Shown one piece after another: positions 43,286 to 49,200 of a DNA stretch of 64,000 nucleotides. Positions within the stretch are counted from its first letter, which is position 1. Every line of letters starts with the position of its first letter. The DNA comes from Pegea sp. RAD2-039. Its lineage: Eukaryota > Chordata > Thaliacea > Salpida > Salpidae. Under the pieces are notes generated by a model. That model was not told the DNA's origin. It made no database searches and saw nothing but the letters and a program-made list of their open reading frames with translations. A program made the translations under genes and the position numbers. The stretch spans positions 186,001 through 250,000 of the forward strand of contig JAQGEQ010000020.1 in the NCBI GenBank assembly GCA_034620365.1, read 5' to 3'.

Positions 43286-46200
43286 TCACGTCTTTTCCAC
43301 TCTTCGCAGAGGATCAGTATCAGGATTCATCGCGTAATTTGCTGCTGAAGATTCAGGATAAGGTTGAGGGGGGAAAGGGCGCGCTGGGGGATAAACTTCG
43401 GGCGGAGGACGCCATCTTCGTTGGTAACCAGGGTATTGAGGATGATAAGCTGATCCCGAGTAATGTCCTCGTGGAGGTGAATAGTATCCAGAAACTCTTC
43501 TGTCGCCACTAGATGGCGGTATGTAGTAGTCTCGACATGGAGGCGGGGATCGGTGGAAATCGCGTCGCGCCCCATAACCCGACGGTGGCCGAAAGTCATT
43601 AGTGACGTCACGATAGCGTCGCGGATCAGGACTTCGTCTTCGGTAGCTTTCCCCAGGTTGTGGGACAGGCGACCACTCGTTTCGCGGACCTGCTGGTCGA
43701 TTACGTGTCCAGTGGTCTTCAGTAGGATGAGGTTTATTGTGCAACCTGCAGAAATGGGTCAGTAAGGTGGTTGCCATGACAACGGCCCACTTACCTGGGG
43801 TCGAATGAAGGTTTTGTTGGAGAAGCTTTCGAAGACAGGTTAGCTCTAAAAAATATTCGGCGTCAAAAAAGTGATTTGATGATGTCATAGAAGACGCGCG
43901 CGTTTCGAGAGATGATTTGAAGATGGTCCAACCTGATTGCTTGAGGTGGTTGGAAATCTCCCGAAGCGCCCAAACTGAATCGATGGTTGTTGCTTGGGGA
44001 CGTCAGTTGCCTAGCAACCGTCGCTGTCACCTGACTATCTTTCACGCTAATTTCTGTTCTACTTCTATAAACAAAGAATCTCACTGAACTGATCTTCATC
44101 TCATAAAAGTGTCTTTAAACAATCAAGAGTGAATCATCTACGCCATGACGAGCGGTTTATTGTCGAATGTGATTGGTTGAAAATGGCGCGAAAAGGAACG
44201 ATGTGAAAAATTGCTCGTTAATTATCTAATCATCAAACGAAGCTTACTTCTCACTACGATTCGAGTCTGAGAAGTTATTTGAATATTTTCGATCGTCAGG
44301 ATGTTGATGAGATGATGACCGGTCTTTTTTGCTGTTTGATGAATCAATATTGTTGCTTTCTGTCCTGACACGTTTGTCCTTGGTACAAAATGACTTTTTT
44401 AGTTTTTGGTTTCAGTTTTTTGTGGCATTACTTTGTGAGATTTTTTGTGCTTTTGGGGAGATTTTGAAGTTTCTACTTTTGACGCATCTTCTGGTTCCGA
44501 ACATTTATGAGATTCCTGAGAAGATGAATAGATGATAGTAATCACGACGCGCGACTTTTCAAGTAACTAACAATAGAAGTACTTCTTTGATTGACAGCTG
44601 ATTTGTACAACTGCAACAATTTACTTGCATTTAACTCCGTAAATCTTGAAACAAATGTCCAAAATTTTCTGCTCAAATAAAAAACGAAATAATAAGTGAT
44701 CAGTGATGACGTCATCACGTACGTTCGCGTTTTTCTGATGTCATTGTGATCTTTGATAGATTTGAGACATTCAAGTATACGATCACCAATCCGAAGGATA
44801 CATTTGTTCATCTTCTCTAAGTGAGTTTTCTCATCTTTACAAGACTTCAGTTTATCAAATTGACGAAATGCCTTTTTGACGGGGCGGAGATGTTCCTTGC
44901 AGTAATTAAATGACTCTTCATCTAAACCTTCTTCTAAAGACTCGACATCAGAACCTGAAATTGGTTAGAATTGGTTTCGAGTGGTGTTTTGATGAGTATT
45001 TACCGATTAGATTGTCTGATATGGTTGTCGGTGGTTGACTGGCTGTCGTGGCGTCTGGTTTGTGTTCCGACTGAAAAGAAGTTGCTGGTGAAAAAATGGT
45101 TAATTTGAAGCAATCAGAAACCAGTTAGCAAATGGTTAATTTGAACCAATCAGAAGAAACCAGTTAGCAAATGGTTAATTTGAACCAATCAGAAACTAGT
45201 TAGCAAATGGTTAATTTGAACCAATCAGAAACTAGTTAGCAAATGGTTAATTTGAACCAATCAGAAACTAGTTAGCAAATGGTTAATTTGAACCAATCAG
45301 AAACCAGTTAGCAAATATTTAATTTGAAGCAATCAGAAACCAGTTAGCAAATGGCCAATTTGAAGCAATCAGAAACCAGTTAGCAAATGGTTAACTTGAA
45401 CAAACCAGAAACCAGTTAGCAAATGGTTAATTTGAACCAATCAGAAACCAGTTAGCAAATGGTTAATTTGAACCAATCAGAAACTAGTTAGCAAATATTT
45501 AATTTGAAGCAATCAGAAACCAGTTAGCAAATGGTTAACTTGAACAAACCAGAAACCAGTTAGCAAATGGTTAATTTGAACCAATCAGAAACTAGTTAGC
45601 AAATGGTTAATTTGAACCAATCAGAAACCAGTTAGCAAATGGTTAATTTGAACCAATCAGAAACCAGTTAGCAAATGGTTAATTTGAACCAATCAGAAAC
45701 CAGTTAGCAAATGGTTAATTTGAACCAATCAGAAACTAGTTAGCAAATGGTTAATTTGAACCAATCAGAAACTAGTTAGCAAATATTTAATTTGAAGCAA
45801 TCAGAAACCAGTTAGCAAATGGTTAACTTGAACAAACCAGAAACTAGTTAGCAAATGGCCAATTTGAAGCAATCAGAAACCAGTTAGCAAATGGTTAACT
45901 TGAACAAACCAGAAACCAGTTAGCAAATGGTTAACTTGAACAAACCAGAAACCAGTTAGCAAATGGCTAATTTGAACCAATCAGAAACCAGTTAGCAAAT
46001 GGTTAATTTGAACCAATCAGAAACTAGTTAGCAAATGGTTAATTTGAACAAACCAGAAACCAGTTAGCAAATGGCTAATTTGAACCAATCAGAAACCAGT
46101 TAGCAAATGGTTAATTTGAACCAATCAGAAACCAAATGGTTAATTTGAAGCAATCAGAAACCAGTTAGCAAATGGTTAATTTGAACCAATCTGAAACCAG

Positions 46201-49200
46201 TTAGCAAATGGTTAATTTGAACCAATCAGAAACCAGTTAGCAAATGGTTAATTTGAAGCAATCAGAAACCAGTTAGCAAATATTTAATTTGAACCAATCA
46301 GAAACCAGTTAGCAAATGGTTAATTTGAACGAATCAGAAACCAGTTAGCAAATGGTTAATTTGAACCAATCAGAAACCAGTTAGCAAATGGTTAATTTGA
46401 ACCAATCAGAAACCAGTTAGCAAATGGTTAATTTGAACCAATCAGAAACCAGTTAGCAAATGGCTAATTTGAAGCAATCAGAAACCAGTTAGCAAATGGT
46501 TAATTTGAACCAATCAGAAACTAGTTAGCAAATGGTTAATTTGAACCAATCAGAAACCAGTTAGCAAATGGCTAATTTGAACCAATCAGAAACCAGTTAG
46601 CAGATGGTTAATTTGAACCAATCAGAAACCAGTTGATGAAATAAAAAACTTTTTTTATCGAACTTTGTGTTTTTTCCTCTTCTTTGATTTGATTGGTTGT
46701 TCATCTTTATCTTCTTCTTTTTCGCGTTTCCGCTTCGATTTAACCGACTTCTTCTACAAACAAGCAGATGATGACCACCACAAACCACTTCAACGACCAC
46801 TTACAGATATGGTAGTGGACAGGTGCTCATTGCAGTCCACAGTAGAGGTGGTAGTGGTCATATTAGCGGTGTTGATAGTGATGCTGATTCGCTCGTTGAC
46901 GTCACTTGTCGAGGTGACAGTTGCGAAATCTTTTTCTTCTTCTTCTTCGACTGGAACTTGAGGCTTCGAGATCGTCTTCCGCTTCCGTAGTGACGTCTGA
47001 TGACCGGAAGTTGAAATTGACGATGGACCAGTCAGTGTTTGTCAACTTACTCTGATCGAGGACTCGGGTAGATGTGGTTTGCGACCATTACAGGACTTGC
47101 GGGTCCGGGTCCGGCCTTTTGGTTTACTCTTTTCAGCTAGTTGAGCTTTTGCGAGAGTTTTAATCAAATAATCAGACCGACTTTGCAACTGACGAATTTG
47201 CGGTTTTTCGTTATTGGCTTTCATAATCTGTAAATTAAAAAGTGAATCGCGATGTCTCCTTATTTGGTCATGTTGGACCTTTTTGCCTAGGTTGAGATTT
47301 GAATCACTTTGTATCTGGTCCCAACTACCCATACCATATTCATAGATGCCGACCAGAAGCTTGGAATCGTCGTCAATGGTCCATTTACAACTCCATGAGG
47401 ACACAGGGCGGACTGGGACATCAAGTCGGAAGCTGTGGACACAAACATAAGTCAACAAGTTGGGGACCAGGTGAGGCAGACCTTTTGCGGTCTTCAACAT
47501 CCTTCGGGATAAAGTAGTCGAGTGGTTTGAGGCTCTCGATGCATGCCAAAGTGGTTTTGACTGATACAGAGACCCCACCTAAACGGAAAGATGGTCCGCG
47601 TCCACGTTTGTTTTCCTCCTACAAAGTCAGTGGTCAGAAAAAAGGTAGAAAAGGGGACCAGAGGTCACCACTTGATGTCGGGATGTTTTCATGTTGTCAC
47701 CGGCAGCTGTTAGTCGTGTGTAGAGTGTTTGTGCTAATTGTTGAAGGTCTGATTGTGATTGTTCATTCAATTCAGCGTCGCGCGCAATAGCTGTCAATCT
47801 ACAACCATGTTGCTTAGCAACCAGTTGGGGACAGTTGTCATGGTTACTAACCGGTTTAAGGGGTCGGCAAACTTACGGAAACTTCTCACAAACCGCCTTA
47901 CTTCAGCCGTACTGAATCCTTCGACTACGTCATCAGCTTCGCGCGTTCCACCGCGACCCAATTTATTACCCTTCAACATCGTCAGTGTGACGTCATCGTC
48001 ATCTTGATCTGATTCATCATTAGGTGGCGTAGCAGATACGTCATCATCGTCATCATCACTATCGCCATGGAACTATAACAACACAATCGATCAGCACCTA
48101 GCAACCGACGCCTCGAAACCTACTTTCAAATGCTTCCGTTGTCGTGGAGGCAAATTCATTTCCTTCTCGCGCTTTAAACGCTCTTCTTCTTCCCATTTCG
48201 ATCTTTCGTGATGAGGAATAATCTCATCCCAATCTTTGATCTCCTGATCTTCATCTTCACTCAAATTAAACGTCTCCACCTGGTGTTCGTTTGTGACGTC
48301 ACATCAACATCGACTTCGTGATCTCACCTTAAATCCAGAAAGAAGCTCATCAAAGGCAGAAGATCCGGTTTGTTCTTGTCGCGTTTCCGCGCGACTCAAG
48401 ATCTCATCAATGTCACACTCAGGATCCTTCTCGTCATTCTCGGTATCCTAGCAACATATAAATAAGAAGGGAGGCGATGGAGGGTAAGAAGAGTACCGCG
48501 AAGAGATCGCCCGCGCCAAATTGAAGTATCGCGTTGAGTTCTTCTTTATTAAAGGGATTGTTGGACGCAGAGTTGGTCGAGGTCTTCAAAAGGACCGTTT
48601 TACCCGATGTGTCCATCCGCTGAATGACCAAGTGGTCCAGAACCATCTTACGTTTGGCACGTTCTACGATGCTTTCTTCAACACTCCCTAAACTTACTAA
48701 GCGATAGATGTGGACCTGTAGATGGTCAGATGGTCCATATTGTAGTTAGAACAGTTGGGACACTAACCTGTTTCTTCTGACCGATTCGATGGGCCCGAGC
48801 TTGCGCTTGGAGGTCATTCATTGGGTTCCAATCGCTATCAAAGATGATGACCGTGTCTGCGGTCGCTAAATTGATCCCTAGACCACCAGCACGAGTGGAC
48901 AACAAGAAGCAGAAGTCTTCGGAGCCTTCAGCGTTAAAATGATCGAGTGCTCGACGTCGCGCGGCGCTATCTACGGATCCATCGAGTCTCTAGGATGCAG
49001 AGATCAGATAGAGATGCTGGATGTAAGTGATGAGGACTTACTTGGAATTGAAGACGCTTCAATTGAAGATATGTTTGGATGATATCTAACATCTGTACCA
49101 TTTGTGAAAAGATCAGGACCCTATGTCCATTCATCTTCAAACGGACCAGCAACTTGTCCAAGAGGACCATCTTACCACTACACGCTAATAAATCCTACAA

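What the first reader, a model, noticed from the sequence alone, without database searches (positions are those of the whole stretch)
45096..46634. Tandem array of about 27 perfect CCAAT-box sites inside a CHD1 intron
Seen: about 43 tandem 36-bp units, most with GAACCAATCAG. Known: NF-Y binds YRRCCAATSRS, which this fits exactly. Inference: the array is either a minisatellite that carries the site by chance or a strong NF-Y platform inside a chromatin-remodeller gene, possibly an intronic enhancer or recombination hotspot. Regular 36-nt spacing (about 3.4 helical turns) would place successive sites on different helix faces.
Basis: partly seen in the sequence, partly recalled or inferred. Interest (0 to 1): 0.7.

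Follow-up and report, generated by a model that had tools for sequence, protein, structure and literature searches.

The report
Minisatellite filling one CHD1 intron
One normally tiny intron of a chromatin-remodelling gene has been swollen about thirty-fold by a 36-letter tandem repeat that carries a well-known promoter motif, and repeats built on the same motif with other unit lengths occur elsewhere in the same genome.

Summary
The array is real: 43 units, mostly 36 bp, at 45094-46634; 26 carry GAACCAATCAG, 27 have CCAAT in the core. It fills 97% of one intron of a minus-strand CHD1 gene; the other 24 introns read are 47-102 nt. 'Fits NF-Y exactly' is wrong: 0 matches to YRRCCAATSRS. Sixteen of 43 units lack the core and its columns are not depleted of variation, so nothing shows the site is preserved. 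But plain chance is too simple: CCAATCAG triplets occur at 849 placements against 2 for the reversed word (10 of them here), in arrays of different period; one 14-bp array opens at the donor of a Calx-beta intron. GGTTGCTA forms arrays too. Best reading: an intron-born minisatellite made from a genome-wide vocabulary of promoter-type words, probably neutral for CHD1. Boldest open reading: the motif itself seeds arrays, as a recombination-initiating site. NF-Y binding, transcription and sister species could not be tested.

The parts
45094..46634 (.). 36-bp tandem array, 43 units; CCAAT reads on the + strand, so the CHD1 transcript carries ATTGG
45071..46663 (-). CHD1 intron (number 23 of the 25 read) that holds the array, 1593 nt
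   Evidence: in-frame donor AAA|GTTCGATA at 46663 and acceptor CTTCTTTTCAG ending at 45071; 46744 is an alternative in-frame donor; no transcript data
46664..46753 (-). CHD1 exon before the array intron (lysine-rich linker)
45004..45070 (-). CHD1 exon after the array intron
44723..44954 (-). next CHD1 exon, in the CHD1-like C-terminal domain (PF13907)
47147..47434 (-). CHD1 HTH domain (PF23588), upstream of the array in the gene; interrupted by a short intron 47228-47278

Best explanation
The array is a locus-specific minisatellite that grew inside one of CHD1's tiny introns. An intron of about 90 nt (some 30 nt of donor side, one 36-nt unit, some 24 nt of acceptor side, in the range of its 47-102-nt neighbours) duplicated an internal stretch in tandem, and slippage or unequal exchange carried it to 43 units while both splice sites stayed outside. 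Shown: array, intron position, uniqueness of the unit, variant units, other arrays in introns of the same genome. Inferred: the starting intron, the duplication mechanism and neutrality. The CCAAT site came with the seed: this genome iterates a set of promoter-type words (CRE, X-box half, CCAATCAG), and arrays made from such sequence carry them. NF-Y may bind some units, but nothing indicates that CHD1 depends on it.
For: Array fills 1541 of 1593 nt of one intron, the other 24 introns read are 47-102 nt. Full unit only here (20 matches, all inside C57:231094-232634, which is this array). Sixteen of 43 units lack the CCAAT core; 3 of the 5 core columns and 7 of the other 31 vary, so the core is not protected. 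Full-length units among numbers 1-27 differ more from the consensus (1.65 changes) than those among 28-43 (0.79), as if one end were being made uniform. Other arrays in introns, with other units: 20 bp x 88 in an Iml1 intron with both splice sites seen, 22 bp x 97 starting just after a donor-like site further on in that gene, its acceptor not seen; 17 bp x 17 beside an fn3 exon, apparently intronic; 14 bp in a Calx-beta gene. The unit is hairpin-prone (+ strand, three units, z -3.81; transcript strand -2.02).
Against: Arrays of CCAATCAG (849 placements against 2 for the reversed word) and GGTTGCTA (2498 against 0) are so common that pure accident is strained; the words are also more frequent singly (8 against 1 and 12 against 0 in 248 kb), which may or may not account for it. 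The 14-mer GTTTCTGATTGGTT sits in the CHD1 array (25 copies on the transcript strand) and in the C15 and C47 arrays, in the same orientation to the gene in CHD1 and C15. Neutrality was inferred from one array in one genome.
Confidence: 0.75

Rival explanations
1. Motif-driven instability: CCAATCA bound by NF-Y (like CRE/M26 bound by ATF-type bZIPs) opens chromatin and draws meiotic breaks, and repair by unequal exchange multiplies the stretch around the motif. The motif would be the cause of the array, not its passenger.
For: CCAATCAG arrays with different periods in one genome; arrays with X-box or CRE words too. In fission yeast CCAATCA and ATGACGT are core sequences sufficient to promote recombination locally, needing Php2/3/5 and Atf1-Pcr1 (PMC6827382, passages). 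In budding yeast more than half of the sites bound by the CCAAT-binding factor are said to lie in hotspots (PMC3534124, passages). NF-YA-like exons are present. GC is 0.405 within 200 bp of 51 TGACGTCA sites against 0.283 at random places.
Against: In budding yeast the CCAAT motif was the one of five that did not significantly raise recombination, and CCAATCA is under-represented in break sites; M26 showed no correlation with natural breaks either (PMC3534124, passages). The words are also enriched singly, so arrays may only sample them; the shorter CCAATCA (37 against 21) and CCAAT (363 against 306) are only mildly enriched. Among the 8 arrays I took from the survey and from L002, L003, L004 and L007, 4 carry a word, against 7 of 24 ordinary CHD1 introns (P 0.18; 4 of 5 if L003, L004 and L038 are left out, P 0.03, chosen after the fact; CHD1 itself is among the 4). 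Raised GC near sites may reflect coding sequence. No recombination data.
Confidence: 0.13
2. An intronic NF-Y platform: 27 CCAAT sites keep the intron open and act as enhancer or alternative start for CHD1 or a neighbour, as the CCAAT-bearing repeats of ABO and LTR12 do.
For: 27 core sites on one strand, 17 of 26 gaps between them exactly 36 bp; NF-YA-like exons over the Pfam cut-off. Precedents: ABO minisatellite (PMC2988417, passages) and 41-bp LTR12 repeats (PMC11853044, passages).
Against: No site matches YRRCCAATSRS; 16 of 43 units lack the core and it is not protected; successive sites are turned by about 154 degrees. The 14-bp arrays at C15 and C47 pack sites too closely for all to be bound at once (inference from the recalled size of the NF-Y footprint).
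Confidence: 0.08
3. A splicing-related role: the transcript-strand word GTTTCTGATTGGTT/GCTAAC (donor-like start, branch-point-like CTAAC and CTGAT) is what is repeated, CCAAT being its unread complement.
For: 41 CTAAC in the array on the transcript strand; the C15 array begins with GTTTCTGATTGGTT exactly at the donor of a Calx-beta intron; a triplicated 32-bp unit at C1:2106899 appears to span an exon-intron border. The consensus unit has no AG on the transcript strand.
Against: Variant units bring 20 AG dinucleotides on the transcript strand; other introns carry CCAATCAG on the transcript strand (CHD1 intron 3; what looks like an intron in L003), so orientation is not fixed; branch-point consensus is recalled, not tested.
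Confidence: 0.04

Closest known systems
ABO 5' minisatellite bound by CBF/NF-Y (PMC2988417, passages)
   Same: Minisatellite whose repeats bear CCAAT-binding-factor motifs; repeat number differs between alleles there
   Different: About 4 kb upstream of the start codon, four-repeat alleles named in the passages, with reporter evidence cited; ours is a 43-unit intron array with no functional data
LTR12/ERV9 U3 tandem repeats (PMC11853044, passages)
   Same: About 41-bp tandem units, 5-17 copies, with CCAAT sites; intronic copies exist
   Different: Part of a dispersed retroviral LTR with NF-Y binding shown; ours is a single locus, its unit found nowhere else
Fission-yeast CCAAT recombination hotspot motif (PMC6827382, passages)
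   Same: Core CCAATCA, present in 26 units; bound by the Php2/3/5 complex, the yeast NF-Y (equivalence recalled)
   Different: A site placed in ade6, no tandem array; no recombination data here
Intronic tandem repeats of animal genomes, e.g. the survey of Daphnia, fly and bee (PMC3152781, passages)
   Same: Tandem repeats with units up to 50 bp, also in introns
   Different: There, repeats with units over 8 bp are much rarer in Daphnia introns than in other regions, and the longest intron repeat tabulated is 682 bp in Daphnia, 943 in bee and 3049 in fly; here arrays of 1.5, 1.8 and 2.1 kb were met in the 264 kb surveyed, the first being the one given to me

Membership tests
minisatellite | head-to-tail units of about 10-100 bp over hundreds of bases | tested here: met
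   36 bp x 42.9, 92% matches
minisatellite | copy number varies between individuals (VNTR) | not testable with these tools
   one assembly only
dispersed satellite or transposon | same unit at many loci | tested here: not met
   full unit at one locus (20 matches, all in the array; the tool calls its counts lower bounds); only the 8- to 14-bp core recurs
NF-Y-bound CCAAT repeat (ABO, LTR12 type) | CCAAT site in most units | tested here: met
   27 of 43 units
   0 matches; first base G; the other ten positions fit
NF-Y-bound CCAAT repeat (ABO, LTR12 type) | NF-Y present in the organism | tested here: met
   NF-YA domain PF02045 in two neighbouring pieces at C3:3181033-3181262, 54.4 and 39 bits, cut-off 27, each match flagged with one stop inside, as expected at exon ends but not checked; NF-YB and NF-YC not tested
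NF-Y-bound CCAAT repeat (ABO, LTR12 type) | NF-Y binding and enhancer activity | not testable with these tools
   no ChIP, ATAC or reporter data
CCAAT meiotic hotspot (fission yeast type) | CCAATCA core | tested here: met
   26 copies
CCAAT meiotic hotspot (fission yeast type) | raised meiotic breaks or crossovers | not testable with these tools
   no recombination map

The most novel reading that the evidence does not exclude
In this animal the NF-Y, RFX and CREB/ATF words are not passengers but the seeds of minisatellites: sites bound by these factors inside gene bodies attract breaks or replication stalling, so tandem arrays with different unit lengths but the same motif core arise again and again, often in introns, and the CHD1 array is one of them.
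Probability: 0.13. Interest if true: 0.75.

Novelty: new member of a known kind. Interest (0 to 1): 0.4.

Why it matters
By itself the array is one more intronic minisatellite. It matters as an entry to a pattern: one genome with several arrays of different period that share a transcription-factor word, beside a 14-bp CRE palindrome present 1972 times where the reversed word has none. That makes a clean test of whether bound factor sites seed tandem repeats; of the papers seen here only the yeast hotspot work bears on the idea.

Tried and rejected
Coding repeat: rejected, stops in all six frames of the array. Dispersed satellite or transposon: rejected for the full unit. Higher-order repeat: no repeated block of variant units beyond three like units in a row (307 of 500 shuffles reach a block of 3), and only lag 14 of the four lags tested is low (0.016, not corrected). 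Known RNA family: none in window, L029 or L039 at gathering scores. Telomere repeat TTAGGC x4 as a clue to the organism: 0. NF-Y spacing literature: 1 paper listed, not read. Papers on TGATGACGTCATCA: 0 in the held library. Searches for its iteration and for intronic minisatellites gave nothing that describes this, judged by listings; one search gave the Daphnia survey, seen in passages. A first gene model read intron 17 as 78 nt; protein continuity made me re-read it as 53 nt (list), by eye.
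Full report
1. What is there. TRF gives one strong array in the window, 45094-46634, period 36, 42.9 copies, 92% matches. I cut it into 43 units: 40 of 36 bp, one of 39, one of 29, one last unit of 33. The consensus is AAATGGTTAATTTGAACCAATCAGAAACCAGTTAGC. GAACCAATCAG is exact in 26 units, CCAATC in 27, and ATTGG is absent, so all sites face one way. The claim that the site fits YRRCCAATSRS exactly is not: 0 matches, since the first base is G; ten of eleven positions fit.

2. Where it is. Pfam finds the CHD1 HTH domain on one side and the CHD1-like C-terminal domain on the other, both on the minus strand. 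An acceptor ending at 45071 and an in-frame donor at 46663 (AAA|GTTCGATA; 46744 is also possible) make the array intronic; there are no transcript data. Of 25 introns read in this gene, 24 are 47-102 nt and this one is 1593 nt, 1541 of them array (I later re-read one of the 24 as 53 instead of 78 nt). Taking one unit as the start, the intron before expansion would have had about 90 nt (inference).

3. Is the CCAAT core kept? Ten of 36 columns vary among the 40 full units, including 3 of the 5 CCAAT columns (probability of 3 or more by chance 0.12). Sixteen of 43 units lack CCAAT in the core. This is no sign of protection, though one array gives little power. The part near the intron's 3' end (units 1-27) is more diverged than units 28-43 (1.65 against 0.79 changes per full unit; 12 of 27 against 4 of 16 lack the core). 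The unit can form hairpins: three units of the + strand fold with z -3.81, the transcript strand with -2.02.

4. Elsewhere in the genome. The genome is 105.7 Mb in 387 contigs, unnamed, with no relatives held. The full unit is found only in this array. I surveyed the window and 20 stretches of 10 kb, two of them next to the window and two chosen for another reason (C58), for arrays of 90 bp or more: besides this one, one small AT-rich array (L038) and two long ones, 20 bp x 88 and 22 bp x 97, both in L039. L039 holds an Iml1 gene (5.7e-36 and 3.7e-16); the 20-bp array lies in an intron with donor 5242 and acceptor 7126, and the 22-bp array starts just after a donor-like site at 7691, its acceptor not seen. 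L002 has 17 bp x 17 beside an fn3 exon, and L007 has 36 bp x 5 with an X-box-like and a CRE word. L052 has a 23-bp GGTTGCTA array and L051 a triplicated 32-bp unit that seems to include an exon end and donor; these two were chosen because of the motif, and the genes they lie in are not named (L051 exon: no Pfam match).

5. The core recurs with other periods. CCAATCAGAAN{30,50}CCAATCAGAA gives 139 placements against 0 for the reversed pattern, and three CCAATCAG with gaps of 6-36 give 849 against 2, of which the CHD1 array holds 10. Placements overlap and count copies, not loci; only the first 100 rows are listed, down to C3 and C47. From those rows and the window I count at least ten loci with three or more copies: C1:2198856 (24 bp), C1:2599398 (21), C1:6109038 (36/39), C3:731432, C3:735146-737499 (22), C3:961256 (22), C15:345905 (14), C24:35822 (14), C47:8526 (14) and CHD1 (36). 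The three on C1 have periods divisible by three and may be coding repeats, judging by their letters (not tested). At C15 the array starts exactly at the donor after a Calx-beta exon and ends before a good acceptor (the middle was seen only as pattern hits); PDB relatives of that exon are Na/Ca exchangers, four sequences at E 3.8e-5 to 0.008. The 14-mer GTTTCTGATTGGTT, the complement of the core, occurs 160 times against 2: of the 100 rows listed 85 lie in the C15 and C47 arrays and 15 elsewhere; the CHD1 array has 25. Gene context at C24 and C47 stayed open. The eleven-mer GAACCAATCAG itself has 156 hits against 32 for its reverse, 26 of them in this array and a run in the C58 duplication.

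6. Not only CCAAT. GGTTGCTA triplets: 2498 placements against 0. Full X-box GTTRCYATGRCAAC: 466 against 3, palindromic copies counted on both strands. TGATGACGTCATCA: 1972 sites against 0, with no conservation outside about 14 bp at 51 TGACGTCA sites (22 of these lie in L001-L008, loci fetched for GAACCAATCAG). Words are also enriched singly in 248 kb of array-free sequence not chosen by motif, save one C58 stretch: CCAATCAG 8 against 1, GGTTGCTA 12 against 0, TGACGTCA 29 against 6; but CCAATCA only 37 against 21 and CCAAT 363 against 306. So arrays may merely sample a rich vocabulary. My test of this is weak: of 8 arrays (CHD1, two in L039, L002, L003, L004, L007, L038) 4 carry a word, CHD1 among them, against 7 of 24 ordinary CHD1 introns, P 0.18; leaving out L003, L004 and L038 gives 4 of 5, P 0.03, chosen after seeing the data. 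That NF-Y, RFX and CREB bind such words is recalled.

7. Mechanism. Most likely an intron-born minisatellite, neutral for CHD1, whose CCAAT came with the seed (0.75). The motif-driven alternative rests on fission yeast, where CCAATCA and ATGACGT each suffice to promote meiotic recombination locally (PMC6827382, passages); the same passages say that Hrp3, of the CHD1 family, matters for M26 only. Against it, CCAAT did not significantly raise recombination in budding yeast, though many sites bound by the CCAAT factor there lie in hotspots (PMC3534124, passages). The enhancer alternative has real precedents in ABO and LTR12 (passages), and NF-YA-like exons are present, but nothing here shows binding.

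8. Verdict. The array itself is a new member of a known kind; the surrounding pattern of motif-cored arrays is what deserves a second look.

Noticed in passing
window 37137, 43150, 43603, 44707, 46897, 47988, 48294, 49983, 50179, 61636, 61720, 62111; whole genome: TGACGTCA is iterated in exons and introns alike (in the CHD1 stretch, 4 in joined exons and 2 in introns); its 14-bp form TGATGACGTCATCA has 1972 sites in the genome against 0 for the reversed word, with no conserved flanks. It looks like a highly iterated palindrome in an animal genome.
   Followed up: partly
whole genome; L051, L052, L039 7703-9830, L007 253-431: X-box-like words (GTTRCYATGRCAAC 466 against 3; GTGGTTGCTAGG 173 against 2, many of them in the L039 array) and arrays of GGTTGCTA (2498 placements against 0).
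   Followed up: partly
L053/L054 (C15:345905-347123): An intron of a Calx-beta (Na/Ca exchanger-like) gene appears to be mostly a 14-bp GTTTCTGATTGGTT array that begins with the GT of the donor itself.
   Followed up: partly
L051 about 290-400 (C1:2106899-2106976): A 32-bp unit in three copies appears to span an exon end and the donor site, so that donor-like sequence is itself repeated.
   Followed up: no
C58:510966-667570 (L029, L030): GAACCAATCAG recurs about every 9-25 kb on one strand; two neighbouring stretches are 96% identical over about 8 kb, so a large tandem duplication is likely. No Rfam match in L029.
   Followed up: partly
window about 49967-49980 (-): The CHD1 reading frame breaks once inside the ATPase region with no intron that I could see; a sequencing slip in a T run or a real frame shift.
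   Followed up: no
window 42000-52000: CHD1 sits in a G+C-rich island (2-kb windows 0.35-0.46) while 20 sampled 10-kb stretches range from 0.22 to 0.37; TGACGTCA and GGTTGCTA are densest in the richest 2-kb bins.
   Followed up: partly
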